A DNA stretch of 43,493 nucleotides. Source: a virus. Location of the stretch: IMG/VR virus record IMGVR_UViG_3300037502_004045, positions 1-43,493 of that record. One strand, 5' to 3'. Below, in pieces: positions 19,463 through 42,600 of this stretch (the stretch's first letter is position 1; the number at the start of each line of letters is the position of its first letter). The position numbers were made by a program, and so were the translations under genes. The notes beneath the pieces are model-generated. The model worked only from the letters and a program-made list of their open reading frames with translations, did not search any database and was not told the DNA's origin.

Positions 19463-19987
19463 ATGTTAGATTTCACAGAGATATCTAGAGATATGGAAAC
19501 AAATTTACAGGATTATACAGAGATACCACAGATTCTAGAAGTAGGTCAAGCTTTATCTCCTGGACATCTATTAGATAGAATAGTTTATAACTTCTCTAAA
19601 CATTATCAACCAGATCCAACAGGGATGATAGTAGAAAAAGAGTTAGTCTCTAGTCCAGAGATAAGCTTTGAAAATGATATAGAATATTCTTATATCACCC
19701 ATCCTGAGGTTACTTTAAATATAACAGCTTATGGTGAAACAGATATCAACCCTTATATCACTAAAGCCCATGACTGGTTTAAAGTTCCCAAATTAGGAGG
19801 GAGATTCTTCGAAAAATATAATGTAGTGATTATAGATGTCACTGAAATTGAGAATTTAGATACTAATCCAAGCAGTGGATATCGCTACAAGAGATCCTTT
19901 GATGTAATCTTGCGATTTGAAGAAGTCATTAAAGTCAGAGAAAAAACAATTGAGATAGTTAAAATTACTGACTTTGATAATAAATAA
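19463..19987 (+). CDS. tail terminator/neck protein of the contractile module (174 aa)
   Basis: First gene of the rightward tail operon, directly before the sheath. The sequence ('GHLLDRIVYNFSKHYQP' near residue 35, 'SYITHPEVTLNITAYGETDI' in the middle) fits gp12-like neck/tail-terminator proteins that occur before DUF3383 sheath genes. These cap the tail and form the joint to the head. No portal, connector or capsid gene precedes it: upstream lies the par operon. AGTGGTGAT is the ribosome site. Confidence 0.65.
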   Translation: MLDFTEISRDMETNLQDYTEIPQILEVGQALSPGHLLDRIVYNFSKHYQPDPTGMIVEKELVSSPEISFENDIEYSYITHPEVTLNITAYGETDINPYITKAHDWFKVPKLGGRFFEKYNVVIIDVTEIENLDTNPSSGYRYKRSFDVILRFEEVIKVREKTIEIVKITDFDNK

Positions 19988-20006: not shown

Positions 20007-21020
20007 ATGATGGCAGATGTTGAAGTGGTAATTAGTGATCAGACAAAGGCAATCAGTCAAGCAGGATTTGGCTTACCTTTAGTCTTTGATCCAACAAGTA
20101 ATGTACCTTATACAGAAGTTACAGCTACAAATGAAATCCCTACAGAAGCTGGAGAGGTAGCTGATGGAATGATAGGAAGGATGTTGTCTCAAGAACCTGC
20201 TCCAGGTAAGGTAGCAGTTTATGGTGTTGATTTAGTTACAGCAGGTACTACTTTAGAAGATGAGCTAAATAAGATGATGGTGGAGCATAATGACTTTTAT
20301 TTCTTATTGTTAGCTAGTAGAGTTCAAACAGATATTGAAGCAGTAGCTGAGTGGGCTGGAGCAAATCAAAAGCTATTTATTGCTCAAAATGATATCACTG
20401 TAGCAGCAGCTGATGTTGTAGCAATGGCAGCTAATATTTCAAGCTCTAGAACTGGTATCTTCGCTTATCAAGGTGATAAAGACCCTTATCTAGATGCAGC
20501 AATAGTAGGAAGAATTGCCCCATTACAACCAGGAGCAGTTACTTGGAAGTTTAAAGAGTTAAATGGAGTACCAGTATCACAGTATCTAAATGCTGATGTT
20601 AGTGCTTTACATGCTGGAAATGTTAATACTTATATTAAAGAGATGGGTGTACTACAAACTTCTGAAGGTAAAGCAACTAATGGAAGTTATTTAGATATCC
20701 AACGTTCTAAAGATTGGTTAAAAGCAAGAATTCAAGAGAGTATCTTCTTCTTATTACATAATGCTGAGAAGATACCTTATGATGATAGTGGTATTGCTCA
20801 AGTTGTTAGTAAATTAAAATCAGTTCTGAAATTAGCTGTAGACCGTGGTATTATTGCTAAAGATGTAGATGGCAATGGTATGTGGTCAATTAGTGCTCCA
20901 AGAAGAGTAGATATTCCTACAAATACTATTGCTAATCGTATTTTGCCAGATATTAACTTTACAGCAACTATTGCTGGTGCTGTTCATAATGTTAAAGTTA
21001 ATGGTGTTTTAAAAGTTTAA
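20007..21020 (+). CDS. contractile tail sheath protein (DUF3383-like, 337 aa)
   Basis: Compact sheath of the type encoded beside short tube proteins in small myophages. Features are an N-terminal 'VVISDQTKAISQAGFGLPLV' segment, a central alpha/beta domain with 'GIFAYQGDKDPYLDAAIVGR', and a C-terminal segment 'RDI/RILPDINFTATIAGAVH'-like strand region. Sheath subunits form a stretched helix around the tube and contract to drive it through a membrane. Followed after 35 nt by the tube gene, as expected. AAGGAGTGATTA precedes the ATG. Confidence 0.8.
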   Translation: MMADVEVVISDQTKAISQAGFGLPLVFDPTSNVPYTEVTATNEIPTEAGEVADGMIGRMLSQEPAPGKVAVYGVDLVTAGTTLEDELNKMMVEHNDFYFLLLASRVQTDIEAVAEWAGANQKLFIAQNDITVAAADVVAMAANISSSRTGIFAYQGDKDPYLDAAIVGRIAPLQPGAVTWKFKELNGVPVSQYLNADVSALHAGNVNTYIKEMGVLQTSEGKATNGSYLDIQRSKDWLKARIQESIFFLLHNAEKIPYDDSGIAQVVSKLKSVLKLAVDRGIIAKDVDGNGMWSISAPRRVDIPTNTIANRILPDINFTATIAGAVHNVKVNGVLKV

Positions 21021-21970: not shown

Positions 21971-21994
21971 TTATATGCTAAATAAAACAGATTT

Positions 21995-22531: not shown

Positions 22532-22546
22532 AAGAGTTAAGTGATT

Positions 22547-22569
22547 AAACACCCAGTTGGGTGTTTTTT
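22547..22569 (+). terminator. terminator after ankyrin gene 1
   Basis: Perfect 8-bp stem AAACACCC/GGGTGTTT with loop AGTT and a run of T, between the ankyrin gene and the tape measure gene. Confidence 0.85.
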
Positions 22570-22604
22570 ATTTTAAAAAACAATTTTTAAAGGAGGTGTT
22601 AACA

Positions 22605-24917
22605 ATGAGTGATTTTGCTTTAGATTTTGGCTTAGGTTTAGATACTAACTTAAACTTTGGAATAAATGATACTTTAAGCTTCTTTAAAAAGGAATTACAG
22701 AAGAGTATAATTGAATTAAAGAGTTTTAACACTCAATTAACAGAAACTAATACAAATTTAACAGAACTTAACAATCATGATAACAAAGCTTCTAAGATTT
22801 CTACAATCAATAGCTTAGTTATTGGTAAAGTAGATAAGTTAACTATCAGTAATTTAACTAACAATGAAAGTGATAGAACAGGTCAAATTGAAAGAGGTAA
22901 AAGTAAAGATTCTAAAGAACAAAATGAAGGAAGTCAAGACCAACAACAATCAGGAATAACGGATTTCTTATCAAGTAATAAGTATGTATTAGCTTTGGCT
23001 AGTACTCTAACAACAGTTCCTGGACTCGTAACAGTATACAAGGGTTTAAAATCTACGTTAGACAAATTTAAATTAGGTATTAGTCCAAAAAATTTCAAGT
23101 TAAATAATATCTATTCTTCACAAGGACTATTAGGTTCAGGTTATAAGTTGCCGGGGTTATCTGGAAGCTATGGCTTGGGAGAATCTCTCTTAAAATTTGG
23201 TTCCTTATCTGCTGGCATATCTTTAGCAATTCATGATGGTTTTAAAGGAGTATCAAAATCTCAAGAATGGCTAGGCAAGAAGAAAGGTAATACTTTTCTT
23301 GGTAAAGCTAACTCCTTTACTAGTGCAGTGATAGGAGGGACTGATTCTGGCTGGTCAGGTGCTTTCAAAGGATTAGGAAAGGGAGCCTTAATTGGAGGTT
23401 ATTTTGGACCTGTTGGGGCTGCTATTGGTGGTGCTATTGGAGCTGGTTTAGGAGCTATTGGAGGAGAAAGAATTGCTAAATGGGTAGGTGGTGTTAAATC
23501 GGATCAAAAACAAAAAGATATAAAATCTGAATTAAACACTAAGAGAAATACTAATAAAGATTTAGTTACCTCAGCTAAGATTGCTATAACAGCTCAAGAA
23601 ATTAGTACAACAGACCAGGGGAATACAACTGTCTTATCTGGTAATAAGGGTAATTCTAATCCAGCTCAAAAAAGCTTAAAGCAAGGCTCTAGTGATGCTG
23701 CAAGCGGAGATAAACAGCCTACTTTGTTAGAGGTACTACAAGAGATTGCTAGTGATGTGAAGAGGATAGCTAATAAGGTGATTAGTATTGGTCAACCGAA
23801 AGAGCTTATAACATCTGAAGTTGCTACTAAACAAGGTGTAGGGGATATAAGTACAAATAAAAAGGATGAGAATAATAAAAAAGATCAAAAAAGTCAAAAT
23901 AAGCAAAGTAGTATCTGGTCTAATCTTTATAATTGGTTGGCTTCTCCCCCCAAGTGGCTACAGTCCTTTTTTAATGCTGATGCTCTAGCAGGATTACTTG
24001 CTGGTAAGACTATCAGTCAAGCAGTTTTAGGTGAAGGAAAAGGTTTATTTTCTGTTATTAAAAAAGCTCCTAAATTATTAGGAAATATGTTTAAGACTAA
24101 TAAATTTATCCCTAATTCTTATCAGGGAGTTCTAGGTTATAAATTGCCAAAACTACCTGGTAGCTTTGGTTTGGATGAAGTAGCTGTAAGGGCTGGAGCT
24201 TCAGTTGCTGGTCTAGGCTTAGCAGTTGTTGATGGTATTAAGGGAATCACTAAATCTAAAGAATGGTTAGGTAAGGAAAAAGGTCATACCTTAATTGGTA
24301 AAGCCAATTCCTTTACTGGAGCAGCTTTAGGAGGAACTGATTCTGGTTGGTCAGGTGCTTTCAAAGGTGCAGGAAAAGGAGCCTTAATTGGATCTTACTT
24401 TGGACCGATTGGGACAGCTGTAGGTGCTGGTGTTGGTGGTATTTTAGGTGCTATTGGAGGAGAACGGATTACTAAAGGGCTACAAGCTACTGGAGATTTT
24501 ATTGGTAATAGATTCAAAAAAGTTGGTAATTGGTTTGGAGAAAAAGTATTTGAATTTGGTCAAAATGATGATATGAATCCAGTAAAACCAAAGGTACTTA
24601 GAGGTCGAGGAGTGATAATTAATCAAGATAAGGAAATTAGAAGTATCCCTAGACATCCTCGAAGTCAATATCTAAGAAATCAAAGAATTACTACTGATTT
24701 TCAAGGGATAAGTTTTAATCAAACTACTACCAATGATATGATTGCTAATAACTCTAATATTAAAGAAGGTAATACATTAAAACAACAAGAGGTTAAGCAA
24801 GTTTTTAATCTTAATATCTCTGGAGATACTGCTGATCCTTATGCTATAGAGCAGGCTATTAAAAATGGTTTTGCTAAGTTAATTGCTGAAGATGCAGCAG
24901 CAGTAATTTCAACATAA
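22605..24917 (+). CDS. tail tape measure protein of the contractile module (770 aa)
   Basis: Long protein between chaperone and baseplate genes. It has a helical N-terminus ('FKKELQKSIIELKSFNTQLT'), Gly/Ala-rich hydrophobic stretches and a polar linker. A block of about 70 residues occurs twice (near residues 225-295 and 545-615), with shared 'KANSFT', 'GGTDSGWSGAFKG' and 'GKGALIG', so the gene grew by duplication. ATG 22605 is chosen over an upstream in-frame GTG at 22557 because AAAGGAGGTG precedes it and the longer form would begin inside the terminator. Predicted tail length near 115 nm, half that of the left module (inference). Confidence 0.85.
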   Translation: MSDFALDFGLGLDTNLNFGINDTLSFFKKELQKSIIELKSFNTQLTETNTNLTELNNHDNKASKISTINSLVIGKVDKLTISNLTNNESDRTGQIERGKSKDSKEQNEGSQDQQQSGITDFLSSNKYVLALASTLTTVPGLVTVYKGLKSTLDKFKLGISPKNFKLNNIYSSQGLLGSGYKLPGLSGSYGLGESLLKFGSLSAGISLAIHDGFKGVSKSQEWLGKKKGNTFLGKANSFTSAVIGGTDSGWSGAFKGLGKGALIGGYFGPVGAAIGGAIGAGLGAIGGERIAKWVGGVKSDQKQKDIKSELNTKRNTNKDLVTSAKIAITAQEISTTDQGNTTVLSGNKGNSNPAQKSLKQGSSDAASGDKQPTLLEVLQEIASDVKRIANKVISIGQPKELITSEVATKQGVGDISTNKKDENNKKDQKSQNKQSSIWSNLYNWLASPPKWLQSFFNADALAGLLAGKTISQAVLGEGKGLFSVIKKAPKLLGNMFKTNKFIPNSYQGVLGYKLPKLPGSFGLDEVAVRAGASVAGLGLAVVDGIKGITKSKEWLGKEKGHTLIGKANSFTGAALGGTDSGWSGAFKGAGKGALIGSYFGPIGTAVGAGVGGILGAIGGERITKGLQATGDFIGNRFKKVGNWFGEKVFEFGQNDDMNPVKPKVLRGRGVIINQDKEIRSIPRHPRSQYLRNQRITTDFQGISFNQTTTNDMIANNSNIKEGNTLKQQEVKQVFNLNISGDTADPYAIEQAIKNGFAKLIAEDAAAVIST

Positions 24918-25069
24918 GAAATTATAATTTTTCCCTATCTTTTTAACTAATAAAAATGAGATAATGATAATATAGATTTCTTTACAGAGTACAATTTACA
25001 GGTAAATTATACTTTTTGAAGAATAAATTACAATAGTTATCCAGATTATATAGTAGATTAGGGGAATAT

Positions 25070-25651
25070 ATGAATAACAAACAAAAAACTTCTAAATCAA
25101 AGTTATTTTTAATGATAATTTTTTATTTAATTATTTTATATCTGTATTATCGAGGAGGAAGTTTTGTTAAAATTGCTGGTAATGGTAGTCCAATAGAGGT
25201 TAAACTAGCACTTAAATTAGGAGCTGATGTGAATCAAAGAGTTCAGGAAGAGGAAGTAGAAGGATTAACCCCTTTAATGGGAGCAGCTAAATATAATAAT
25301 CTAGAAGTTTTAAAGATATTAGTAGACCATGGAGCAAAAGTAAATGAACGCGATCGTTTGGAATTTACACCTTTAATGTATGCGGTAGCTTTTAATTCTA
25401 ATCCACAAGTAACTAAAATATTGTTAGAGGCTGGAGCTGAAGTTAATGGTGTAAGAGATGGTGGTTGGACACCGTTAATGTGGGCAGCTAGATATAATCA
25501 AAACCCTGAGGTAGTACTAACTCTTTTAAACTATGGTGCCGATCCAAAAGCCAGAAATAATGGAAATTGGCGTCCAATTGATTTAGCTGATAAGAATGAA
25601 AATTTAAAGGGAACAGATGTCTATTATAAGTTACAGAAGTTGAGTTATTAG
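25070..25651 (+). CDS. membrane-anchored ankyrin-repeat protein (193 aa)
   Basis: N-terminal basic segment and one hydrophobic span (about residues 13-27, 'LFLMIIFYLIILYLYY'), then about four ankyrin repeats ('SPIEVKLALKLGADVNQR', 'LTPLMGAAKYNNLEVLKI', 'FTPLMYAVAFNSNPQVTK', 'WTPLMWAARYNQNPEVVL'). No lipobox, so the repeats are held at the outer face by an uncleaved anchor. Clearly related to the 22193 lipoprotein. It sits between the tape measure and baseplate genes, followed by its own terminator. Such inserted genes are typically expressed independently of the late operon. A protective role for the host cell is inferred only. Confidence 0.8.
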   Translation: MNNKQKTSKSKLFLMIIFYLIILYLYYRGGSFVKIAGNGSPIEVKLALKLGADVNQRVQEEEVEGLTPLMGAAKYNNLEVLKILVDHGAKVNERDRLEFTPLMYAVAFNSNPQVTKILLEAGAEVNGVRDGGWTPLMWAARYNQNPEVVLTLLNYGADPKARNNGNWRPIDLADKNENLKGTDVYYKLQKLSY

Positions 25652-25688
25652 TAAGTAGTAATAAGTTAAAAATAATCAATTTTAAGAT

Positions 25689-25713
25689 AAACACCCAATT
25701 TGGGTGTTTTTTT
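25689..25713 (+). terminator. terminator after ankyrin gene 2
   Basis: AAACACCC/GGGTGTTT stem with loop AATTT and T-run, the same stem sequence as the terminator after ankyrin gene 1. Confidence 0.85.
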
Positions 25714-25767
25714 ATTGCCAATAATTCACTTGGTTGTAATTACTCGCTATGAAACTTTTTTCATTTA

Positions 25768-25825
25768 AAACAATGTTATATACACAAAATATGTATATAA
25801 CATTGTTTATGACTCTTAATGAGTC
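25768..25825. promoter_or_regulatory. 16-bp inverted repeat and adjacent GACTC-GAGTC palindrome
   Basis: Perfect arms at 25768-25783 and 25793-25808 around a 9-nt loop, without a T-run. Next to it, GACTCTTAATGAGTC (25811-25825) is a palindrome whose halves match the sites before ankyrin gene 1. A weak -10 TACAAT lies at 25853-25858, upstream of the Dit-like gene. Probably the control region that restarts transcription of the baseplate genes. Confidence 0.5.
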
Positions 25826-25911
25826 TAAATACTTCCTTATTTATGTCAATGTTACAATAAGAGTAATATTCAATTAGTAGTTAAATTCTTAAAGAAGATG
25901 GTGGTGATAAG

Positions 25912-26373
25912 ATGGCTAAACTAGGTAAATTAATCTTTGAAGTGGTTGAGGAAGAGACCGTTGACTTTACTAATAATCTAATCTCTAAACCGATAGAGGA
26001 TCGTAATGAGATTTCAGATCATATAACCCATCAGCCAGTTACGGTTAATATTAAGTTTGTAGTATCTGCTCTTAATAGTAAAGATACTTATGATACTTTG
26101 ATTGAGATGCATAATTCTAATCAAGTTTATGACTATAATGGAGTTCATGGCTTTTATAATAATATGGCAATTAAGAGTTTAAGTGTTCCTAGAAATTCTA
26201 AGATAGTAGAGGGATTTCAAGGAAGCCTTAAATTACAACAGATTAGAATTGTAGAACAACAGAGTATTCAAAGGGCATTAGGCAAGGACCCAGTTACTGA
26301 AAATCAAGCCCAAAGTGATAGTAAGCAAGCAGAGAAAAGAAGTACTAAAGAAGATAATATTCAAAAGACCTAA
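25912..26373 (+). CDS. Dit-like baseplate protein (153 aa)
   Basis: The N-terminal 120 residues resemble the Dit-like N-terminal domain of tail proteins ('GKLIFEVVEEETVDFTNNLI', 'ISDHITHQPVTVNIKFVV', 'VYDYNGVHGFYNNMAIKSLS'), a beta-rich ring-forming fold. The C-terminal 30 residues are charged and unstructured. In compact contractile phages this gene sits after the tape measure and before plug and hub, as here. GGTGGTGATAAG precedes the ATG. Confidence 0.7.
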   Translation: MAKLGKLIFEVVEEETVDFTNNLISKPIEDRNEISDHITHQPVTVNIKFVVSALNSKDTYDTLIEMHNSNQVYDYNGVHGFYNNMAIKSLSVPRNSKIVEGFQGSLKLQQIRIVEQQSIQRALGKDPVTENQAQSDSKQAEKRSTKEDNIQKT

Positions 26374-26391
26374 TAAAAAAGGGGGATTAAG

Positions 26392-26733
26392 GTGAAAGTC
26401 AATTATTTGCCTATTAATAGAGAAGAGATTGAAAAGAGACCCGATAAATTTATCACAACTATTGATAAGATAGAGCTTATCTTTGAAATTTCATGGAATC
26501 CAGAGATGGAAGCCTTCTTCTTTAAACTCTATGATTACGAAGAAAATCCTATTTTATTAGGAAGAAGAATAGTTTATGGAGAAGATATGTTAGCTACTTT
26601 GATAGATGAAAGGATTCCAGATGTTAAGATTATTCCTCTAGACAAGACGGGGGCAGCAGAGAGAGAAGGAATCACCTTTGAAAATTTCATGGTCAGTGTT
26701 AAACCTTATATTATTGAAGGTGATAGTCAATGA
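26392..26733 (+). CDS. baseplate plug-like protein (113 aa)
   Basis: Small beta-rich protein ('KFITTIDKIELIFEISWNPE', 'ILLGRRIVYGEDMLA') matching the pattern of the baseplate plug family found between Dit-like and hub genes in simple myophages. Starts at GTG 26392 after GGGGGATTAAG and overlaps the hub gene by 4 bases (ATGA), so the two are translated together. Confidence 0.65.
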   Translation: MKVNYLPINREEIEKRPDKFITTIDKIELIFEISWNPEMEAFFFKLYDYEENPILLGRRIVYGEDMLATLIDERIPDVKIIPLDKTGAAEREGITFENFMVSVKPYIIEGDSQ

Positions 26734-27530
26734 CTGCTTTTGGTAGGAATGTAGAGCTTACTATTGATGATAAGGTAATTAAATATCCAGATTTAGAGAT
26801 GAGCTTTGAAGTAAATTTTGATACGAAATCTGATGGGAATGTGGGAAATATAAAGGTTTATAATTTAAGTAAAGAGACTATTAGACTGATTAAAAAGAAT
26901 GCGGTATTGAGCTTAAAAGCAGGATATAAGGATGACATAGATTATATCTTTATAGGGGTTGTAGCTTCTGCTACTACCAAGTGGAAGAATCCTGACAAGG
27001 AAACAGAGATTATTATTGGTGATCATACTGATGCTTGGCTAAATACTACAATTAATCAAACCTGGCGCAAGGGAATTCAAGCTTCTAAGGTAATTAAGGA
27101 TGTTGTAGCTGTCCTTCCCTTAGAGATTGGGAAGATAGAGATACCAGAGGATAAGAGTTATCCTAAAGCAAAGACCTTTAGCTGTACTTGTAAGAAGGCT
27201 TTAGAAGAGCTAGCAGCTGACTTATCTTTAAAGCTCCATGTCAATAAAGGGAAAATCTATTTAAGGTCAGAAGACAAAGGAACAGAGCAGATAGTTATTT
27301 TAAATAAAGATACAGGCTTAATAGGCAGCCCTCAAGAGATAAGTACTACAGATGCTAAGAAGGATAAATATAAGATTCAATCCTTATTGAATTACAGAAT
27401 TGAAAGTGATTTAGTATTAAAGGTGGAATCGAATACAATCAATGGCTATTATCGAGTAGAGCAGGGCAAGCATTTTTTAAGTGGAGATGACTTTTTAACT
27501 GAGATTGAAGTTAGTAAATATGAAGAATAG
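26730..27530 (+). CDS. baseplate hub protein, gp27/late-control-D-like (266 aa)
   Basis: Typical hub layout: an N-terminal domain ('DLEMSFEVNFDTKSDGNVGN', 'IKVYNLSKETIRLIKKNAVL') as in small-phage hub proteins, then a middle domain with 'FSCTCKKALEELAADLSLKL' and a C-terminal barrel ending 'TEIEVSKYEE'. The hub trimer links the tube to the spike. It is translationally coupled to the plug gene and separated from the spike gene by a decayed lipoprotein gene. Confidence 0.75.
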   Translation: MTAFGRNVELTIDDKVIKYPDLEMSFEVNFDTKSDGNVGNIKVYNLSKETIRLIKKNAVLSLKAGYKDDIDYIFIGVVASATTKWKNPDKETEIIIGDHTDAWLNTTINQTWRKGIQASKVIKDVVAVLPLEIGKIEIPEDKSYPKAKTFSCTCKKALEELAADLSLKLHVNKGKIYLRSEDKGTEQIVILNKDTGLIGSPQEISTTDAKKDKYKIQSLLNYRIESDLVLKVESNTINGYYRVEQGKHFLSGDDFLTEIEVSKYEE

Positions 27531-27646
27531 ATCTTATTTATCTTTCTCTAAAATCATTATTTTAAGATAAAATATAGTAATTAATAGAATTAAAACCACT
27601 TATATACTATAATATAGATAAAGTGTTAATAATTGGAGGAAGCTAG

Positions 27647-28478
27647 ATGGTGTCTAAAATAAAATTACTAATATGGGTAATAATAGCAATTATGTTACAG
27701 GATGTATAATAAAGGGATTAGCTGAGAAACAAGCAGCTCGAGAGAGAGTAGCCAAGGTACACCAAGAGGCATTGGAATATTTACAAGACTTGTATAATGA
27801 AGAGTTTGTAATCAAAGATACGAGATATATCAAAAATACAGGTGTTTGGGAGCTGACAGCAGCGCCAAAGACTGATCAAGACTTAGATTTCTTTGTTAAA
27901 ACAGGTGGGATGTATGGAGATGGCTTTGTATCTAATTATGCAAAATTAAAGTTATCTTAATCAATCAAAAGACTATTATAATCCAGTTTTAAAAGAAATC
28001 TTTGGAAGACAAATGTACTTCTATTCTAATATGGCGACAAGGGCAAAATTTAAAGATAGTAAGATACCGACCTTTGAAGAATTATTGGAATATGGTCCTG
28101 AAGATACTTATGTCAATATATTCATTTACATATTTGAAGATGTAATAACTGATGAGAAGAGAAAAAAAGAATTTCTATCTAACGTGCTGGAGTTATTAGA
28201 GTACCTGCGAGGACAAAATCTGAAATGGGCACAAATTCAAGTAAATATCTATGATGAAGAGTTCTTTAAAGATAAGGATATAGAATATCTTAAAAGAGAC
28301 ACAGTTCTTTCATACAGGCTCAGTAAACCTTAAATATAATGCTTTTGAATATAAATCCTATGAAGTATATGGATTGAGAATAAGTCGTAAGGAATTTTCT
28401 GAAATAAAGACACTTAAAGGTTTAGAAGGTGAATTGTATAAAACAGATAAAAAAATTTTTAAGAGAATAAAAAATTAA
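27647..28478 (+). pseudogene. decayed lipoprotein gene with three frameshifts
   Basis: One protein can be followed across frames. It starts 'MVSKIKLLIWVIIAIML' at ATG 27647 behind GGAGGAAG and should continue into 'GC' of a lipobox but shifts frame at about 27705. The body (to 27957) then shifts again into 'NQSKDYYNPVLKEIFGRQMY' and on to 28331, and a last segment ('YEVYGLRISRKEF' to a stop at 28476-28478) is in a third frame. Open pieces at 27673-27960 and 28013-28333 are thus fragments, not genes. It resembles small phage lipoproteins inserted as morons. Neighbours on both sides are intact, which argues against poor sequence quality. Confidence 0.7.
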
Positions 28479-28565
28479 GCAAGAAATCTTAATTTAATTT
28501 TGCTAGATTAGCGAAAAATATATTTTAAATACATTTCTTTAGTAGGAGAGAGGTGAAGCAGAAAG

Positions 28566-31500
28566 GTGAGTCAAATTATAGAGATTAAAAGAAAAATAGA
28601 GTTATTAAGTCAGGAATTTACAGAATTATTGGAGCTCAAGGAATTAGCTAATGATGTTGAGCAAGGAATGGTGAGCTTGTCTGATGAAGAGAAGAAAGAA
28701 TTAGAAGATTCTATTACTTCTACAAATCATCAAGTAGAGACTTTACAACAGGAATTAAATCAATTATCCAAGGAAGTATCCTCTGAAGTTGCAACTGAGG
28801 TTATAGAAGATACCAAAGTAAGGTTATACAAGATAGAGGAAGAAATCATAAATAATCAAGAAAAAATAGCAGAGTTGGAAGAATTAAAAAAATCAATAGA
28901 ATCAGAAATAGAGTTACTAAACCTTGAACAATTAATCACATATAAAGAGGTTGAGATAGACAAATTAAAGGAAAAAAAAGAATTAATAAAATCGATACAA
29001 CAACTTTTTTATAAATCAGAATTAGATCCAATAACCGACTTACAATACTTAGCCTTAGCTGATTTAGTATATGAGGATTTTAGTAAATTTAATGGCAATA
29101 ATGGTGGTATAGTACTAAATGATATATTTAATGATAATAGTAATTTTAAATCTAAAAGAGAAGATACCAAAAGTAGATGGAGAACTTACAGAAAACATGT
29201 AGGAGATTGGATGTTTTTAAAAGCCTATAATCCTAAAGAATTATTAACTGGGGGAAAAGAAGAGCTGACTCTAGAAGAAGAGCAGTTCTATGCAGCTGCT
29301 TTTCAGCACCCTGATAAGAAAAGAATAGTCATTACCTACAGAGGAACAGATGGTGATAATGGAGCTTATGACCGAGGGAAGACGATATCAGGTGTCAGTG
29401 TAAGCCAATCAATCCCTATATTAAAAGAATTAATTCCTATATTAGCAGAAAAGATTACCATACTAAAGAAAAAATTAAATATTGATCCCGACTTTCTATT
29501 GGAACATCTAGTTACAAATAGAAAGATAGCAGTAGATACTCCAGGAAGACAGTTTGAATTAGCTAAAGAATTTTATGAAAAAATACAAACTTTGTATAAT
29601 GATAATATTTCTTTTACTGGTCATTCCCTTGGTGGTGGCTTAGCCCAATATGCAGCAGTAATCTCTTCTAGTAAATCTAATCTCCCAACTTCAGTGAAGA
29701 ATACTGTAACTTGGAATGGAATAGGAATCAAAGCATTTTCAAAGATAATGGGCTATGAATTCTTCGATGAATATATCTCTATTGCCCAAAGGCTAAGAGA
29801 TATATCAGGGGAATTTGCTAAAGATCATATACCTTTTATAATATATACAAGTTTAGCGAAGAGTACTTTAAATTCTTTTGAAGAGAAGGGCTATATAAGA
29901 GATGGAGAGATAACAGACGAGTTCTTAAATATCAAAGGAGAAATAGACACTGAAAAGATAAAAGAGGTCATAACACCTTTAAGTATAAAAAGAGCATTCA
30001 TAGAGTTTTTTAAAGAGTTAATACAGATTGTAGGTGATATAGGAGATATTCTTAAAACACCAGTTATTGGAGTCTTAAAATTTATTTTCAACAGAGTAGA
30101 TGTTATTTTTGAGACTTTATGTAATGATGATGGCTACAATATCTTTGATTCTCCTAAAAATATACAGAAAAAATTAGAATCTAAAAGAAGATTTGCTACC
30201 TATTATCAAAGTGGAGATAAGTTTGAAAAAAGGGTAGTCAATTATATCAATTCTCTAGATTTAACAGGTAATTTTGCTCAGCATATAGGGAGTACTTATG
30301 TAGTTGATAAAGAGCTAAAAATAAAAGATGCTGAAAGCTTATTAGCAGATTACCCAGACATTGAAGGGATAGAATTTTCAGCTCAGCATGGATTTGATGT
30401 CTTTTATCCCTTTATACTCTTAGAAGAAGAAGGACAAGTCGGTGACCCTAAAAATAGATATGGTGAAACTGCTAAAGTTGGTGACATCACCACTAATCTC
30501 AGCTATGATTACCTCCGTTCCATAGTCAAAACTATCTTCTTAGATATAACTGATGCTGGAAAGAAGAAGAAACTATTAAAGAAGTTTTTTAAGAGTAAAG
30601 CAGCAGGAAGTAATTTAAAAGCAATCAAAGCTGCTTTAGCCAATAGTGCCATCTTTCAAGAAAGAAATGATAATCAAACTGTAGAGGATGTTATGGCTGA
30701 AAGTAAGATAATGTGGCTGCCTTATCGCGGGGCTTTAGTTATTATTGATGGTATTATTCCAGATATCTCTTTAACCTCAGATAATTTAAAATATAAATTA
30801 GATACAACCATCCTAGCAAATTTAGCTAAGATGACAGCTGATGAGATAAATAGCTTATGGAAGTGGGAGAGTAGTGAAGAGCAGGCTTATCTAACTTTGG
30901 GGACAGAAGATATCAATGAGAGTAATAAGACTATCTATCATGTTATTGATGAAGATGCAGAGGAGTATATAGATAATTCTAGACAGAACCTTAGTATAGA
31001 GCTTGAGCAAGGAGAAGCTAGCACAGAGCAAAGTAGCAATACCTTTGCTAACAAAACAACTCAACAGTCTACTCTAGCTAAGAATCAAAAGACTACTAGC
31101 TTAAGTGGCTTAATAAAGTCATTGATTAATCAAGAGCTAGATGAATTGAATGTAGCCTTACCAGCTAAAATAGAAAAGTATTATCCCAAAGAGTTAAAAG
31201 CTGAGGTTACCTTACTTGCTAAAAAGAATTTAGAGGGGCAAGAGGTTGTTATTCCCCCATTACTAGAGTGTCCAGTTAAGATATTAAAGGCTGGACCTTT
31301 TATTATTAGACCACCTTATCAAAAAGGTGATATAGTTCAGGTCTTATTCAATCAGCGTGCCTTAGATAAATTATTGATCACTGGAGAACCAGCCAGTGTA
31401 GAATATACTCGTCGCCATGCTTTAGATGATGCAGTAATTATTGGAGGATTAAAGACAGATAATCAAGTTGATACCCCAGATGAAGAGTTAAATAGCCTTT

Positions 31501-31838
31501 ATATCGCCAATACTGATACCAATTCAAGGGTCTTTATTAACTTACTTGGAGATATAATCGCTAATAATGAAACCCATCAAGTTGAGTTAATTCAAGGTAG
31601 CAATATCAATATTAGTACTGAAAATAAGGTCAATATCAATTGTAGTGAGGCAAATATCAACTCAGGTTCAATCAATTTAGGAAACAATGCTACTGAAAGT
31701 GTAGTCTTAGGTGATTCTTTTGCTGCAGTTTTTGAAAACCATACCCATCCTTATAGTTGGGGTCATAATCCTGGGTCAGGAGATACATCTCCTCCAAGTT
31801 CAAAAGTACCTTTAAGTTCAGTAACTAAAACAGAATAG
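28566..31838 (+). CDS. baseplate spike fused to a class 3 lipase (1090 aa)
   Basis: Three parts. Residues 1-150 form a charged coiled coil. Residues about 160-600 are a class 3 (Rossmann-type alpha/beta) lipase: 'TYRGTDG' near 258, nucleophile Ser354 in GHSLGG, and Asp565 in 'NSLDLTGN' and His573 in 'HIGSTYVV' as likely remaining triad members. Residues about 850-985 match the gp138-type spike N-terminal domain ('LPAKIEKYYPKELKAEVTLL', 'PPYQKGDIVQVLFNQR'), followed by a beta-helix-like repeat region and a His-rich tip ('NHTHPYSWGH'). The spike sits under the hub and is driven into the target on contraction, so the lipase would be delivered with it. Starts at GTG 28566. Confidence 0.8.
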   Translation: MSQIIEIKRKIELLSQEFTELLELKELANDVEQGMVSLSDEEKKELEDSITSTNHQVETLQQELNQLSKEVSSEVATEVIEDTKVRLYKIEEEIINNQEKIAELEELKKSIESEIELLNLEQLITYKEVEIDKLKEKKELIKSIQQLFYKSELDPITDLQYLALADLVYEDFSKFNGNNGGIVLNDIFNDNSNFKSKREDTKSRWRTYRKHVGDWMFLKAYNPKELLTGGKEELTLEEEQFYAAAFQHPDKKRIVITYRGTDGDNGAYDRGKTISGVSVSQSIPILKELIPILAEKITILKKKLNIDPDFLLEHLVTNRKIAVDTPGRQFELAKEFYEKIQTLYNDNISFTGHSLGGGLAQYAAVISSSKSNLPTSVKNTVTWNGIGIKAFSKIMGYEFFDEYISIAQRLRDISGEFAKDHIPFIIYTSLAKSTLNSFEEKGYIRDGEITDEFLNIKGEIDTEKIKEVITPLSIKRAFIEFFKELIQIVGDIGDILKTPVIGVLKFIFNRVDVIFETLCNDDGYNIFDSPKNIQKKLESKRRFATYYQSGDKFEKRVVNYINSLDLTGNFAQHIGSTYVVDKELKIKDAESLLADYPDIEGIEFSAQHGFDVFYPFILLEEEGQVGDPKNRYGETAKVGDITTNLSYDYLRSIVKTIFLDITDAGKKKKLLKKFFKSKAAGSNLKAIKAALANSAIFQERNDNQTVEDVMAESKIMWLPYRGALVIIDGIIPDISLTSDNLKYKLDTTILANLAKMTADEINSLWKWESSEEQAYLTLGTEDINESNKTIYHVIDEDAEEYIDNSRQNLSIELEQGEASTEQSSNTFANKTTQQSTLAKNQKTTSLSGLIKSLINQELDELNVALPAKIEKYYPKELKAEVTLLAKKNLEGQEVVIPPLLECPVKILKAGPFIIRPPYQKGDIVQVLFNQRALDKLLITGEPASVEYTRRHALDDAVIIGGLKTDNQVDTPDEELNSLYIANTDTNSRVFINLLGDIIANNETHQVELIQGSNINISTENKVNINCSEANINSGSINLGNNATESVVLGDSFAAVFENHTHPYSWGHNPGSGDTSPPSSKVPLSSVTKTE

Positions 31839-31852
31839 CTAAAGTTTATTAG

Positions 31853-31875
31853 GCAGCTAAAAGGCTGTTTTTTTA
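31853..31875 (+). terminator. short terminator after the spike gene
   Basis: CAGC/GCTG stem with a 6-nt loop and seven T. Weak stem, strong T-run. Confidence 0.6.
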
Positions 31876-31904
31876 TTTTAATAAGAGAAAGTAGAGGTGA
31901 TTAG

Positions 31905-33149
31905 ATGAGTGAATATGGAGTTAATCAAAAAGGCTTTAACAAGAAGACAAGGGAAGAGATCTCAAAGGATATGGAGATTTTAGCTAAAAATCTATTTGGA
32001 GATGAGATTAATTTAGCAGACAACTCCCCTTTAGGAAAGTTTATTAAGTTAAATGCTTTTGAGATGAATAGGTTATGGGATTTGGCAGAAGGGATTTATA
32101 ATGCTACCTTTCTTAATACAGCCACTGGTCAAGCATTAGATAATATAGCTAACTATTTAGGAATTAAAAGAAAAGAGGCCACTGCTGCTAGAGGAAAGGT
32201 CATCTTTAGTGGTGAAGCTGGAACGCTAATTAAGCCAGATACCTTATTAGAGACTGATGAGGAGAATCCAGTTCAATTTAAGACAATCAATCAAGAAGAT
32301 GTAGTTTTAATAAATAGTACTTCAAGTCCTAATTTAGGAGAAGCAGAGGTTCCTATTCGAGCAATAACTAAAGGAGCTAACACCAATGTTGATGCACATA
32401 CTATTACCCAAATAACTAATCCTTTGCCAGGCATTGATAGTGTTACTAATCCTAAAGCTACAGCAGGTGGTCAAGAAGAGGAGACAGATTTTGAATTAAG
32501 GGAACGTTATAAGGCTTCTGTAGCTGCTCCAGGAGGGTCTACCATAGCTGCTATTAAGTCCAATGTACTCAAGGTTGATGGGGTCAGAGCTTGCTTAGTT
32601 GAAGAGAATGATACTTTTGATTTTGATAAGTACGGTCGTCCCCCCAAAAGCTTTGAAACTATAGTCTTAGATGGTGTTGATGAAGATATTGCTCAAGCTA
32701 TCTTTGAGAGAAAACCTGCTGGGATACAGGCCTATGGTCAAGAGACTGTTGAAATCTATGATGATGCTAATAACCCACACCTTGTCAACTTCAGTAGAGC
32801 TGAAGAAGCACATATCTATGTTAAGCTTGAGTTGACTGTCGATGAAACTAAGTATCCAGAAGATGGTGATAAGTTGGTCAAAGATGCAATTATTAGCTAT
32901 ATTGGAGGGAAAAACTCTAAAGAAGAGCTAGCTTTAGGATTGAGTTTAGGTCAAGAAGTAATCTATAGTAAACTATTTGATGTAATCTATTCTGTCTCTG
33001 GAATTAAAGATGTTAAGTTTAGCTTAGCTAAAAGTAATCAAAAGATTGAGAGTGATCAGTTGGAGTTTAAAGCAGAGAACTTAACTATAAAATCTAATCA
33101 GGTGGCAACTACCAGCTTAGATAAGATTGAAATTAGTAAAGTAGAATAA
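31905..33149 (+). CDS. baseplate J-like wedge protein 1 (414 aa)
   Basis: Matches baseplate J proteins: N-terminal 'ADNSPLGKFIKLNAFEMNRL', 'TGQALDNIANYLGIKRK', a beta domain with 'LIKPDTLLETDEENPVQFKT', then 'ELRERYKASVAAPGGSTIAA' and 'GVRACLVEENDT'. J proteins form the baseplate wedges holding fibres. It is a paralogue of the 35851 gene with one Ig-like domain fewer. It is followed by a gpI-like gene and a fibre gene, making a full wedge cassette. AGAGGTGATTAG precedes the ATG. Confidence 0.85.
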   Translation: MSEYGVNQKGFNKKTREEISKDMEILAKNLFGDEINLADNSPLGKFIKLNAFEMNRLWDLAEGIYNATFLNTATGQALDNIANYLGIKRKEATAARGKVIFSGEAGTLIKPDTLLETDEENPVQFKTINQEDVVLINSTSSPNLGEAEVPIRAITKGANTNVDAHTITQITNPLPGIDSVTNPKATAGGQEEETDFELRERYKASVAAPGGSTIAAIKSNVLKVDGVRACLVEENDTFDFDKYGRPPKSFETIVLDGVDEDIAQAIFERKPAGIQAYGQETVEIYDDANNPHLVNFSRAEEAHIYVKLELTVDETKYPEDGDKLVKDAIISYIGGKNSKEELALGLSLGQEVIYSKLFDVIYSVSGIKDVKFSLAKSNQKIESDQLEFKAENLTIKSNQVATTSLDKIEISKVE

Positions 33150-33161
33150 AGGGGGGAACTT

Positions 33162-33869
33162 ATGAAGAAGACAGTTTCTGATTTGATCAATAGATTACCT
33201 GATAATTATCAAAAAGATGAGAGTCTAGATAATAATATTTACAAGATACTTAGTCTATTAGGTGCTGAGCTTGATTTGAGTAAAGAAGTATTTAAAAAAT
33301 TAAGTGAAGTATTCTTAATTGATCAAGCAGAGGGAAAGAATTTAGATAGAATTGGAGAGAATCTACAACAACAGCGTGGTTATCTCTTAGATAGAATCTA
33401 TCGAGTCTTACTTAAGGCTAGAATCAAACTCAATATCTCCAATGGTACTATCAATGAGATTATTGAGATTTTAGCTACTATCTTTTCAATTAATAAGAGT
33501 GAAATTGAGGTTAAAGAGCCCTTTTGGGGTACTTTTAAATTTGCTACCAAAAGCAATCAAGCTGAATTTGATCACTTTGGCTTTGATAGTGGGAAGTTAG
33601 CTGCCAATCCTAGTGATTGTGCAAGGATTATGTTAGCTCTTCCACCCCATGCCTTAAATAAGATTGGATTTTCAAGACAATGGTTTGAAGAGTTAATCAC
33701 AGAGCTTTCAGCTGCTGGAGTACAGGCTCAACTATTATATCGTGGAAGTTTTGCTTTTGCTAAAAAAGCAGCTCAAATAGATAAAGATGATAAAGAAGGT
33801 TTTGATAGTGGTAATTTAGGAGCTTATTTTGAACCTCCTAGTGCCAAAAGCTTACCATTAACAAGATAA
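33162..33869 (+). CDS. gpI-like baseplate wedge protein 1 (235 aa)
   Basis: N-terminal 'RLPDNYQKDESLDNNIYKIL' and 'DQAEGKNLDRIGENLQQQRG' are typical of the gpI/DUF2612 group that partners baseplate J. The C-terminal half is longer than in the second copy by about 40 residues and has an inserted 'KSNQAEFDHFGFDSGKLA' segment that recurs in part at the C-terminus ('GFDSGNLGAYFEPP'). AGGGGGGAAC precedes the ATG, 12 nt after the J gene. Confidence 0.75.
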   Translation: MKKTVSDLINRLPDNYQKDESLDNNIYKILSLLGAELDLSKEVFKKLSEVFLIDQAEGKNLDRIGENLQQQRGYLLDRIYRVLLKARIKLNISNGTINEIIEILATIFSINKSEIEVKEPFWGTFKFATKSNQAEFDHFGFDSGKLAANPSDCARIMLALPPHALNKIGFSRQWFEELITELSAAGVQAQLLYRGSFAFAKKAAQIDKDDKEGFDSGNLGAYFEPPSAKSLPLTR

Positions 33870-33885
33870 AAAAGGAGAGGATATT

Positions 33886-35358
33886 ATGCCACAAGAAGGT
33901 AAAATCACACAACACATCCCTGAAGATTGGGAGAAACAGGGTTCAGCTATCCCTAGTGGAGAGAGAAGTTGGGAGGCCCAAGAGAGACCTCCAGCAGATT
34001 GGTTTAACTATTTCTTTTATCATGTAATTGAAAGTTTAAAAGATTTGGATCAAAATAGTATTGCAAATATCAATGAGATTCCTGCTTTATACGTAGACAG
34101 TCAAGATAACTTACCTAAGCCAGGAGAGAAGAATAGTTTATTTATTAATACTGATAATGGAGAGATTTTAGTTGACAATGGTACAAAGTGGGTGCAGGTA
34201 GCTGCTGATGATTTGACCTCACAAGAGATTCTAAACCTACTTAAGAAGGTAGATGGCAAAGGTAGTGGATTAGATGCTGATACTGTTAGAGGAAGAAAAT
34301 TAGATCAGGAGTTAGATACTTTAAAGAGTAATATGAATAACTCTAATTCTGCCTTAAATACTAACCTAACTAACCATAAGAATGATAAAACTAACCCTCA
34401 TGATGTAACAGCAACACAGTTAGGAGCTACTAACATCTTAACTGAAGTAAAGAAAGTAGATGGTAAAGGCAGTGGACTAGACGCTGATACCATTAGAGGA
34501 AGAGAACTAGATGAAGAGTTGGATCAATTAAATACTAAGGTAGATAATACTACAGCTAATTTGAAGAATACTATGAATAATGCTGATAATGAACTAGCAG
34601 TTAATTTGACTAATCATCAAGATGATACTACTAATCCCCACCAAGTGACAGCTGCTCAATTAGGAGCAAATAATATCTTAGCTGAAATCAATAAGGTTGA
34701 TGGCAATGGAAGTGGCTTAGATGCCGATAAATTGGATGGACTAGAAGCTAATAATTTTGCTAAAACAGGTCATAATCATGACAATAGATACTATACTCAA
34801 GCTCAAGTGGATACTAAGGTTAGTAATTTAGTCGATTCAGCTCCCGAAACTTTAAATACTTTAAATGAATTGGCTCAAGCTTTAGGAGATGACCCTAACT
34901 TTGCTACAACTGTCTCCAATCAGATTGGAACTAAACTCAGTCAGTCTAGTAATTTAGCTGATCTTAATAATAAAGCTACAGCTAGAACTAACTTAGGTTT
35001 AGGTAGTGCAGCTACTAAAGATAGTAGTCATTTCTCATCTGCAGGACATGATCATGATGGGCTTTATTATACGCAAGAACAAGTCAATAATTTATTAGAA
35101 GAAAATAATATTGCTGTTATTAGTGGTAAAATAGCACATGGGCAGAAATTACCTTTGCCTTCTGGCTATATACAAGAACAATGTCATTGGATAATATCAC
35201 CTAACACTGTAAAAACAGATAATAATTATGGTAAAAATATTCATTATAGAATTTATTCTTATGTGGATTCTGATTTAACAGTTAATATTTATTTTAATGA
35301 TGGTTCAGGACATAGTTATGGTGGCTCTGCCAATTATTTAGTTATAGGAATAAAATAG
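33886..35358 (+). CDS. tail fibre 1 with repeated shaft units (490 aa)
   Basis: N-terminal anchor 'SWEAQERPPADWFNYFFYH' matches phage fibre attachment regions. The shaft has three 'VDGxGSGLDAD' units with 'NPHDVTATQLGA'-type repeats, then 'HNHDNRYYT' motifs and a block of about 65 residues shared with fibre 2 (34791-35000). The tip differs: a beta-rich C-terminus ending 'GGSANYLVIGIK', probably the receptor-binding part. Placed after a J/gpI pair and before a terminator. Together with fibre 2 it gives the particle two alternative or joint receptor specificities. Confidence 0.8.
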   Translation: MPQEGKITQHIPEDWEKQGSAIPSGERSWEAQERPPADWFNYFFYHVIESLKDLDQNSIANINEIPALYVDSQDNLPKPGEKNSLFINTDNGEILVDNGTKWVQVAADDLTSQEILNLLKKVDGKGSGLDADTVRGRKLDQELDTLKSNMNNSNSALNTNLTNHKNDKTNPHDVTATQLGATNILTEVKKVDGKGSGLDADTIRGRELDEELDQLNTKVDNTTANLKNTMNNADNELAVNLTNHQDDTTNPHQVTAAQLGANNILAEINKVDGNGSGLDADKLDGLEANNFAKTGHNHDNRYYTQAQVDTKVSNLVDSAPETLNTLNELAQALGDDPNFATTVSNQIGTKLSQSSNLADLNNKATARTNLGLGSAATKDSSHFSSAGHDHDGLYYTQEQVNNLLEENNIAVISGKIAHGQKLPLPSGYIQEQCHWIISPNTVKTDNNYGKNIHYRIYSYVDSDLTVNIYFNDGSGHSYGGSANYLVIGIK

Positions 35359-35441
35359 TCATATAGGGGAACCTATACTTGACTAATATAAGTGAAGAGT
35401 ATTTAATTAACTAAACTAGTTGGTTAATATGAAATAACTTT

Positions 35442-35465
35442 ACCGCCTAAGAGCGGTTTTTTTAA
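35442..35465 (+). terminator. terminator after fibre 1
   Basis: ACCGC/GCGGT stem with loop CTAAGA followed by seven or more T. Confidence 0.75.
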
Positions 35466-35490
35466 TTTATCAGATAAAGAAGGTGATAAA

Positions 35491-35850
35491 ATGAAAAGTT
35501 TCTACCTTAATCAAGCTGGAGATTTAGAATTGGATCAATTCAATAATATTAAGCTTGTTGAAGATACAGCTGAAGTTAAGCAACGTAATTACTTAACCTT
35601 AACAACTAATCAAGGGGAATGGTTTTTAAACCTTAACTTTGGTATTCCCTGGATTGAGCTTTTAGGACAGAAGAATAATCAGGAAGATATCAGATATGAG
35701 ATCATTAAAGCTTTAAACCAAGATGATGCTATTAAATCAGTAGATTCTGTTGAGCTTGATTTTAACCAAGAGAACCGTTATCTAACTATATACTTTCAAG
35801 CTACATTAACTGATGATACAACCTTTAGCCAAGAAGTGGAGGTGCTTTAG
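35491..35850 (+). CDS. gp25/GpW-like baseplate wedge protein (119 aa)
   Basis: Carries the family pattern 'NYLTLTTNQGEWFLNLNFGI' followed by 'PWIELLGQ', and a beta-strand C-terminus. gp25-like proteins start sheath polymerisation on the baseplate. Only one copy is present, next to the second J gene with no gap, which suggests it serves both wedge sets. Confidence 0.85.
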   Translation: MKSFYLNQAGDLELDQFNNIKLVEDTAEVKQRNYLTLTTNQGEWFLNLNFGIPWIELLGQKNNQEDIRYEIIKALNQDDAIKSVDSVELDFNQENRYLTIYFQATLTDDTTFSQEVEVL

Positions 35851-37919: not shown

Positions 37920-37932
37920 AAAGGAGGAGTTA

Positions 37933-38133: not shown

Positions 38134-38138
38134 TTTAG

Positions 38139-41615: not shown

Positions 41616-42146
41616 ATGAAAGTAATCTGTATCGATCCAGGTCATGGAGGTAAGGACCCAGGAGCAATCAGTCTTAGTAATAAGAGAGAAAAAGATTTTG
41701 CTTTAGACGTAGCTTTACGTTTAGATAAGTTATTAAATCAAGGTGGATTCCGTTCAGCCTTGACAAGATATAAGGATAAATATATTAAATTGGCTGAGCG
41801 TGCTCAGCTGGCCAATCTTATTGGGGCTGATCTCTTTATTTCAATCCATTTTAACGCAGCAGGCTCCAAAGAAGCCCAAGGAACAGAAGTCTTGCACTAT
41901 CCATCTAAAACTTCTCAAAGGTTTGCCCAGCTAATCAATAATGAAGTTAAAGGATTAGGAAGAAAGGATAGAGGGGTTAAGGCTAGAGCTAATTTAGTGG
42001 TCTTAAACTCTACTAACATGACTGCTTGTTTGGTAGAAGGCGGTTTTTTAACCAATGCAGCAGAGGAAAAATTAATAAATTCACCAAACTTTCGTCAGCA
42101 ATTAGCAGCAGCTATCTTTAAGGGGATTAAAGAATACTTTAAATAA
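41616..42146 (+). CDS. N-acetylmuramoyl-L-alanine amidase, endolysin (176 aa)
   Basis: Single Amidase_3 catalytic domain: 'IDPGHGGKDPGA' with zinc ligand His10, Glu25, His78 in 'SIHFNA' and catalytic Glu141 in 'LVEGGFLTN'. It cleaves the amide bond between muramic acid and the peptide stem. No signal peptide and no cell-wall-binding domain, so it depends on a holin for export, and the small single-domain form is common in phages of bacteria with an outer membrane. AAAGGAGGTAATAAA precedes the ATG. Confidence 0.92.
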   Translation: MKVICIDPGHGGKDPGAISLSNKREKDFALDVALRLDKLLNQGGFRSALTRYKDKYIKLAERAQLANLIGADLFISIHFNAAGSKEAQGTEVLHYPSKTSQRFAQLINNEVKGLGRKDRGVKARANLVVLNSTNMTACLVEGGFLTNAAEEKLINSPNFRQQLAAAIFKGIKEYFK

Positions 42147-42168
42147 TCTATAGAAAGGAGTGATTTTA

Positions 42169-42600
42169 ATGTGGAGTCAGATTATGAATTTAGTCTCTAC
42201 TACTATTAAACCAATTGGTGAGATAATCGATAATCTCAATACCTCTGAAGAAGAAAAATTAGCAGCTAAAAGGGCAATGGAGCAAATTCAAAACCAATTA
42301 ACTACAAAGATGATCGATCTTCAACAAAAGGAGCTGGAGGCCAAAAAAGAGGTTGTAGTAGCAGAAGCTAAGAGTGAACACTTCTTAACAAGTGCCTGGA
42401 GACCAATTACTGCTTTGGTCTTTACCTTTATTATTGCTAATAATTATATTATAGCTCCCTATACTGAAGCCTTATTTGATGTTAAGGTTATGTTTGAGAT
42501 CCCACCACAGATGTGGAATCTGTTAAAGATCATGATTGGTGGTTATGTCTTAAGTAGAGGAGTAGAAAAGACAGCTAGTCAAATGAAAAAAGAGAGATAA
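42169..42600 (+). CDS. holin of the 3TM type (143 aa)
   Basis: An N-terminal amphipathic coiled part with 'EEEKLAAKRAMEQIQNQL', then 'FLTSAWRPITALVFTFIIAN' and a C-terminal span with 'MWNLLKIMIGGYVLSRGVE', the signature of Holin_3TMs proteins (Trp-Arg-Pro before the first span and Gly-Gly-Tyr near the end). ATG 42169 has AAAGGAG at the right distance; an in-frame GTG at 42160 is less likely. It closes the right-hand operon. Confidence 0.8.
   Translation: MWSQIMNLVSTTIKPIGEIIDNLNTSEEEKLAAKRAMEQIQNQLTTKMIDLQQKELEAKKEVVVAEAKSEHFLTSAWRPITALVFTFIIANNYIIAPYTEALFDVKVMFEIPPQMWNLLKIMIGGYVLSRGVEKTASQMKKER

What the first reader, a model, noticed from the sequence alone, without database searches (positions are those of the whole stretch)
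28566..31838. Spike protein carrying a class 3 lipase and coiled coil at its N-terminus
One 1090-residue chain joins a coiled coil, a lipase with GHSLGG and a plausible Ser354/Asp565/His573 triad, and a gp138-type spike. Phage spikes more often carry a lysozyme domain. A lipid-cutting enzyme suits attack on membranes and resembles the way evolved VgrG proteins carry effectors. The enzyme lies N-terminal to the spike, whereas VgrG effector extensions are usually C-terminal.
Basis: partly seen in the sequence, partly recalled or inferred. Interest (0 to 1): 0.8.

Follow-up and report, generated by a model that had tools for sequence, protein, structure and literature searches.

The report
Toxin-armed spike on phage-type tail
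A lipid-cutting bacterial toxin, which related bacteria carry next to a protective lipoprotein gene, has been welded onto the puncturing spike of a phage-like contractile tail; the needle probably delivers a weapon, and this combination was found nowhere else in the genomes searched.

Summary
The 1090-codon reading frame is real: a charged, probably coiled-coil N-terminus, a class-3/Mbeg1-like lipase with GHSLGG, and a complete gp138-type spike with the HTHP tip. Two corrections. The catalytic histidine is most likely His608, not His573. The N-terminal part is not a phage entry enzyme but a captured interbacterial toxin. Its nearest relative is an 865-aa toxin (56% identity over residues 4-477) in a chromosomal VgrG-containing locus of an unnamed Bacillota genome, directly behind an intact membrane lipoprotein gene. 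The window keeps that lipoprotein gene too, 79% identical in DNA but broken by frame changes, wedged between hub and spike. In related prophages hub and spike genes abut or overlap, and their spikes are 210-257 aa with no extension. The family is related in kind to TslA, the type VII-secreted phospholipase whose immunity protein TilA is also a lipoprotein encoded upstream. The contig has no recognisable head genes, although both its contractile and its non-contractile tail modules come from phages that do; this suggests a tailocin-like weapon rather than a virus. Phospholipase activity, delivery and killing are inferred, not shown. The AlphaFold model was uninformative (pLDDT 36).

The parts
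28566..31838 (+). Toxin-spike fusion protein, 1090 aa
   Evidence: ORF; domains
28566..29015 (+). Residues 1-150: charged, probably coiled-coil N-terminus
   Evidence: E/K/L-rich; 36% identical in the G412 toxin; no dedicated predictor available
29016..30485 (+). Residues 151-640: Mbeg1-like/class-3 lipase domain with a helical insertion between Ser and Asp
29625..29627 (+). Ser354, predicted nucleophile (GHSLGG)
30258..30260 (+). Asp565, predicted catalytic acid
   Evidence: D in Ser-containing relatives, N in Ser-less paralogues
30387..30389 (+).
30486..31019 (+). Residues 641-818: conserved C-terminal part of the toxin module
31020..31100 (+). Residues 819-845: polar linker at the fusion point
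   Evidence: relatives' toxin matches end at about 818 and canonical spikes start at about 845
31101..31838 (+). Residues 846-1090: complete gp138-type spike; HTHP tip at residues 1059-1062 (31740-31751)
   Evidence: 43-47% identical to prophage spikes
27647..28478 (+). Broken immunity-type lipoprotein gene (LTGC lipobox), reading frame changes three times; pieces 27673-27960, 28013-28333, 28374-28478
   Evidence: intact in L132 12502-13428
26730..27530 (+). Baseplate hub, 266 aa
   Evidence: phrog_196 1e-58; 49-53% to prophage hubs
31905..33149 (+). Baseplate J, first copy
20007..21020 (+). Contractile tail sheath
   Evidence: phrog_205 7e-72; 59% to L056
21056..21463 (+). Tail tube
   Evidence: phrog_280; 70% to G436 prophage
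19463..19987 (+). Tail terminator, first gene of the contractile module; no head genes upstream
41616..42600 (+). Lysis cassette: amidase (41616-42146) and holin (42160-42600)
   Evidence: phrog_435, phrog_3427

Best explanation
The protein is a polymorphic-toxin effector fused in frame to the N-terminus of the trimeric gp138-type spike of a phage-derived contractile tail. An ancestor took up a lipoprotein-immunity plus lipase-toxin cassette of the kind found in chromosomal VgrG loci of the same bacterial class, at the boundary between hub and spike genes (shown by protein and DNA homology on both sides of the junction). The expected working is: the toxin is made in the cytoplasm, is assembled as three copies around the hub and spike, leaves the producer by lysis, is driven through a competitor's envelope by sheath contraction, and there cuts membrane phospholipids with Ser354-Asp565-His608. 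Kin carrying the lipoprotein (intact in related chromosomes, broken here) would be protected. Shown: gene structure, homology, fusion, broken immunity-type gene, absence of recognisable head genes. Inferred: enzyme activity, antibacterial role, outer placement on the spike, immunity function.
For: Closest relative is an 865-aa toxin in G412 (56% over residues 4-477, 40% over 512-816), directly behind an intact lipoprotein gene that matches the window's broken pieces at 63% and 76% protein identity and 79% DNA identity. DNA similarity to that locus covers much of 27717-30589; DNA similarity to prophage spikes starts at 31153. Lipoprotein or membrane-protein genes sit beside lipase genes in L103, L106, L109, L110, L135, L136 and, as short lipoproteins, in L107, L108, L113. 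VgrG-like domains follow the module in L101, L102, L104, L105, L106, L132, L137. TslA/TilA precedent: N-terminal lipase, phospholipase A, immunity lipoprotein encoded upstream (PMC10730906). Canonical spikes in related prophages are 210-257 aa and abut the hub gene. No head homologue in the window.
Against: No activity, structure or delivery has been shown; the AlphaFold model had pLDDT 36 and says nothing. The immunity-type gene is broken, so a producer would need another source of protection. The contig is truncated at both ends, so head genes could lie outside it and the particle could be a true phage. There is a single example of the fusion. His608 was assigned by alignment only.
Confidence: 0.66

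Rival explanations
1. An ordinary phage spike whose extra lipase helps the virus get its DNA through the membrane of its own host.
For: The tail genes are clearly of phage origin, and the closest sheath relatives are complete phages or prophages. Lysis genes, a repressor and replication-type genes are present.
Against: None of the related phages and prophages examined carries the domain. The domain comes with an immunity-type gene and has toxin relatives. No head genes in 43 kb.
Confidence: 0.17
2. A decaying remnant: the toxin was captured but is no longer used, as its broken immunity gene suggests.
For: The lipoprotein gene changes frame three times in 830 bp.
Against: The neighbouring 1090-codon ORF is intact, with Ser, Asp and His kept, whereas paralogues that lost the nucleophile also lost Asp. 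The spike tip is complete.
Confidence: 0.1
3. A chimeric metagenome assembly joined a bacterial toxin locus to a phage tail.
For: A single virus record; no second copy of the fusion found.
Against: The join is in frame, has a linker, lies inside a tail operon with hub on one side and J on the other, and the cassette is 71-79% rather than 100% identical to its chromosomal relative.
Confidence: 0.06

Closest known systems
TslA/TilA, type VII-secreted lipase toxin and its immunity lipoprotein (PMC10730906)
   Same: N-terminal lipase of the same broad kind, G-x-S-x-G serine, Ser-Asp-His triad, immunity lipoprotein encoded just upstream
   Different: TslA is exported by the type VII system through a C-terminal helical domain; here the carrier is a contractile-tail spike, and the lipoprotein was not matched to TilA's family
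Evolved VgrG / Tle phospholipase effectors of the type VI secretion system
   Same: Effector enzyme carried on the spike of a contractile machine, with membrane-located immunity
   Different: VgrG extensions are usually C-terminal and VgrG joins hub and spike in one chain; here the enzyme is N-terminal and the hub is a separate gene, as in phages
Chromosomal lipase-VgrG proteins in the same bacterial class (L101, L102, L104-L106, L132, L137)
   Same: Homologous module, N-terminal to a VgrG-like hub/spike
   Different: Where VgrG is fused in the same ORF the nucleophile motif is degenerate or its segment is missing; the long relatives with intact serine (L132 865 aa, L135, L136) are not VgrG fusions
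MuF polymorphic toxins of temperate phages (PMC5576092)
   Same: Polymorphic toxin carried on a virion-type structural protein, found in Firmicutes phages
   Different: MuF toxins belong to the head/packaging module; this one is on the tail spike
gp138-type spikes (phage phi92 gp138, PDB 3pqi)
   Same: OB-fold domain, rod and HTHP tip
   Different: No 845-residue N-terminal extension
R- and F-type tailocins
   Same: Tail modules without head genes, lysis cassette, repressor-type regulator
   Different: Known tailocins kill by puncture and, as far as I recall, carry no spike-fused toxin; headlessness here rests on a truncated contig

Membership tests
gp138-type contractile-tail spike | xxxxx_N / OB-fold domain | tested here: met
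   PF18352 8.4e-14 over the whole model
gp138-type contractile-tail spike | rod and HxH tip aligned to a solved spike | tested here: met
   3pqi aligned over 849-1075 with HTHP
gp138-type contractile-tail spike | position between hub and baseplate wedge genes | tested here: met
   hub 26730-27530 upstream, J 31905 downstream; the gp25-like gene lies further on, after the duplicated J-I-fibre block
Class 3 / Mbeg1-like lipase | profile match above curated cut-off | tested here: met
   Mbeg1-like 33.1 bits against 21.1; Lipase_3 itself is just below its cut-off (19.8 against 22)
Class 3 / Mbeg1-like lipase | Ser-Asp-His triad | tested here: met
   Ser354, Asp565, His608 by alignment; not shown biochemically
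Class 3 / Mbeg1-like lipase | alpha/beta-hydrolase fold | tested here: inconclusive
   model pLDDT 35.8, unusable
TslA-type T7SS substrate | C-terminal helical targeting domain and small helical partner genes | tested here: not met
   C-terminus is a spike; no WXG-like partner next to the gene. Not filed as TslA
Evolved VgrG | Phage_GPD (gp27-like) plus spike in one chain | tested here: not met
   no Phage_GPD match in the 1090-aa protein; hub is a separate gene
Toxin-immunity cassette | cognate immunity gene adjacent | tested here: met
   lipoprotein gene upstream, homologue intact beside the toxin in L132, L103, L135, L136; broken in the window; immunity function itself not testable here
Tailocin | tail module without head and packaging genes | tested here: inconclusive
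   no head homologue found, but both contig ends are open
Tailocin | bactericidal headless particle | not testable with these tools
   needs electron microscopy and killing assays

The most novel reading that the evidence does not exclude
The record is part of a plasmid-like element (replication-type gene, ParM/ParR) that carries two headless tails, one contractile and one non-contractile, as a double tailocin, and its contractile tail bears a phospholipase toxin on the spike. It would be a diffusible contractile weapon whose payload, and whose immunity, were taken from a bacterial chromosomal VgrG system.
Probability: 0.35. Interest if true: 0.88.

Novelty: new variant of a known kind. Interest (0 to 1): 0.74.

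Why it matters
Phage tails, tailocins, type VI and extracellular injection systems are thought to trade parts, but direct cases of an effector moving with its immunity gene from a chromosomal VgrG locus onto a phage-type spike are hard to catch. Here both edges of the transfer can be read. It also shows a way to arm a phage-type spike: fusion at the N-terminus, without disturbing the needle. If active, it predicts tail particles that kill with an enzyme rather than only by puncture, with kin protected by an immunity lipoprotein, and it makes the idea testable with a handful of recombinant proteins.

Tried and rejected
Close relatives by exact-peptide scans: P0001, sheath and hub found nothing in viral contigs, P0001 nothing in genome contigs. 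Lipase part in phage records: no match; whole protein in plasmid records: no match. PHROGs: no match for the fusion protein. Baseplate J alignment was too diverse to search with. A viral-contig scan with TGHSLGGG-type patterns gave a single distant relative, a Bacillus-type prophage lipase beside a WXG-like gene. AlphaFold on the lipase with one homologue: pLDDT 35.8, discarded, and no fold search made on it. Rejected: His573 as catalytic base; assembly chimera; membership in TslA or VgrG proper. Host name: genomes reached through the genome search are unnamed; I suspect Halanaerobiales/Halobacteroidales from GC content and gene flavour, but did not show it. Promoter scan at the cassette start was no better than shuffled sequence.

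Full report
1. What is there. The window is a 43,493-base virus record. ORF 28566-31838 (+), GTG start, encodes 1090 aa without interruption. Pfam finds Mbeg1-like (4.9e-8, above its cut-off) around the GHSLGG motif, Lipase_3 just below cut-off, and the gp138-type spike domain PF18352 (8.4e-14) at 865-961; NCBIfam finds the SA1320 lipase family (1.1e-11, partial match). The spike aligns with phi92 gp138 (3pqi) over 849-1075, including the HTHP tip, so the needle is complete. The N-terminal 150 residues are E/K/L-rich; I take the coiled coil as likely, not proven.

2. Surroundings. The + strand carries a contractile tail: terminator, sheath, tube, tape-measure-like protein, XkdP-like protein, a 113-aa protein, hub, [broken lipoprotein gene], fusion spike, J, I, fibre, gp25-like, J, I, fibre, then PKD protein, amidase and holin. 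A similar order, with a short spike and no extension, is seen in D6E, AP45, EauM-23, LspM-01 and others and in viral contigs.

3. Relatives of the N-terminal part. Searching 398 genomes of one phylum with the lipase region gave matches in 11. Restricting to the order and class of the best hits (13 and 59 genomes) gave the key relatives. In G412 (locus L132) an 865-aa protein matches residues 4-813 (44% overall, 56% over 4-477) and lies directly behind a 308-aa lipoprotein gene. The window has the same lipoprotein gene between hub and spike, at 63% and 76% identity in its two larger pieces and 79% in DNA over 27717-28502, but its frame changes three times. The long ORFs around it are intact, so poor sequence quality is an unlikely cause. 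DNA similarity to L132 covers much of 27717-30589; similarity to prophage spikes begins at 31153. The fusion point, residues 819-845, is a polar linker. Thus a lipoprotein-toxin cassette sits exactly at the hub/spike boundary and the toxin is fused in frame to the spike.

4. Normal state of that boundary. In the prophages of G412, G127, G426 and G436 the hub and spike genes overlap or lie within about 10 bases, and the spikes are 210-257 aa. No other fusion was found among 59 genomes of the class. The wider 398-genome search used the lipase region only; of the long ORFs inspected, most ended in VgrG-like domains and one in RTX-type repeats, none in this spike. These searches cannot exclude fusions elsewhere.

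5. Catalytic residues. Across relatives, Ser354 (GHS-[LA]-[GA]-G) and Asp565 occur together. Paralogues with GDGLGG, GSLLAG or GDLLGG have Asn instead of Asp. His608 (HGFDVF; HGFDTF, HGLDVF, HGLNMF in relatives; HSMNQY and HGLGNY in shorter ones, read by eye) follows the same trend, though some degenerate paralogues keep it. His573 (H-[IVL]-G) is kept almost everywhere, including in Ser-less paralogues. I therefore place the triad at Ser354-Asp565-His608. Structure prediction did not help.

6. Family and function. The same module occurs N-terminal to VgrG-like hub/spike proteins (phmmer 1e-96 or better for the VgrG part in L101, L102, L104, L105, L106, L132 and L137), as separate toxins beside VgrG genes (L132, L135), and as short lipases beside WXG-like genes in Paenibacillus-like genomes and a Bacillus-type prophage (L107, L108, L113; these two labels are my impression, the records are unnamed). 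Lipoprotein or membrane-protein genes with a shared motif lie upstream in most. The characterised relative in kind is TslA: N-terminal phospholipase A, antibacterial, neutralised by the lipoprotein TilA encoded upstream (PMC10730906). A phospholipase toxin with membrane-anchored immunity is the best reading. Activity and immunity are inferred.

7. What carries it. tblastn with the terminase, portal, head and connector proteins of the related prophages and phages finds nothing in the window, while their tail proteins match in order. In the related contractile prophages G412, G426, G436 and G450, head or connector genes lie just upstream of the terminator; here that place holds ParM/ParR-like genes and a perfect inverted repeat. 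The left, minus-strand module (tube, chaperones, tape measure, tail protein) also starts without head genes, whereas its relatives in G409 and G309 have them. Two headless tails suggest a tailocin-like element, but both contig ends are open. A simple true phage remains possible.

8. How it probably works. Three toxin domains would hang from the base of the spike, outside the hub, much as the lysozyme domain does in phage T4 (from general knowledge; three domains of this size would not fit the tube). Release is by holin and amidase; contraction drives the spike through the target envelope; the lipase then meets the membrane on the side where a lipoprotein would protect kin. The broken immunity gene may be tolerated because related chromosomes hold intact copies (two in G412); this is a guess for the unknown host.

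9. Comparison. It works like an evolved VgrG or a Tle effector, but is not a VgrG (no Phage_GPD domain). It resembles TslA in enzyme and immunity order, but not in export. It differs from MuF toxins, the known phage-borne polymorphic toxins, in being on the tail spike rather than in the head module (PMC5576092). Literature searches within the open-access library found no spike-lipase fusion of a phage-type tail; that library is incomplete and titles, abstracts and term counts were read, not every paper. I rate it a new variant of a known kind.

Noticed in passing
window 1-8334 (-) and 19463-39245 (+): Two tail modules of different type (non-contractile and contractile) on one contig, neither with head genes, although relatives of both have them directly upstream.
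   Followed up: partly
window 31905-35358 and 35851-39245: The J-I-fibre block is present twice; J1 and I1 are closest to the G127 prophage (49.5%), J2 and I2 to the G412 prophage, so the tail seems to combine baseplate parts of two lineages.
   Followed up: partly
window 22193-22531 and 25070-25651: Two small membrane-anchored ankyrin-repeat proteins (one with an LAGC lipobox) sit inside the tail operon around the tape-measure gene; they could be further immunity or exclusion genes.
   Followed up: no
window 22557-24917: The protein in the tape-measure position (786 aa, with a 277-nt internal repeat) has no match in 59 genomes of the class, unlike its neighbours.
   Followed up: partly
window 15251-16366 and 17824-19181: Plasmid-type genes: a replication-like protein (28% to one in the G412 prophage) and a ParM/ParR-like pair, followed by a perfect 28-bp inverted repeat (19176-19232).
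   Followed up: partly
L132, L102 with L114 and L115, L137: Chromosomal loci of this Bacillota class with a VgrG-like protein, a 710-aa and a 145-aa protein, DnaJ, FHA-like, phosphatase and kinase genes and several toxin-lipoprotein pairs; looks like a poorly described VgrG-based system.
   Followed up: partly
L101, L102, L104, L105, L137, L132 6350-9781: Lipase-like modules fused to VgrG have lost the serine and usually the aspartate, as if kept as a structural or adaptor domain.
   Followed up: partly
L109 9323-12266; L132 12502-15024: Tandem copies of the lipoprotein or membrane immunity-type gene next to truncated toxin remnants, a pattern of orphan immunity.
   Followed up: no
window 42805-43059 and 43163-43492: Right end carries a fragment of an Rpn-type transposase and the end of a tyrosine recombinase.
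   Followed up: partly
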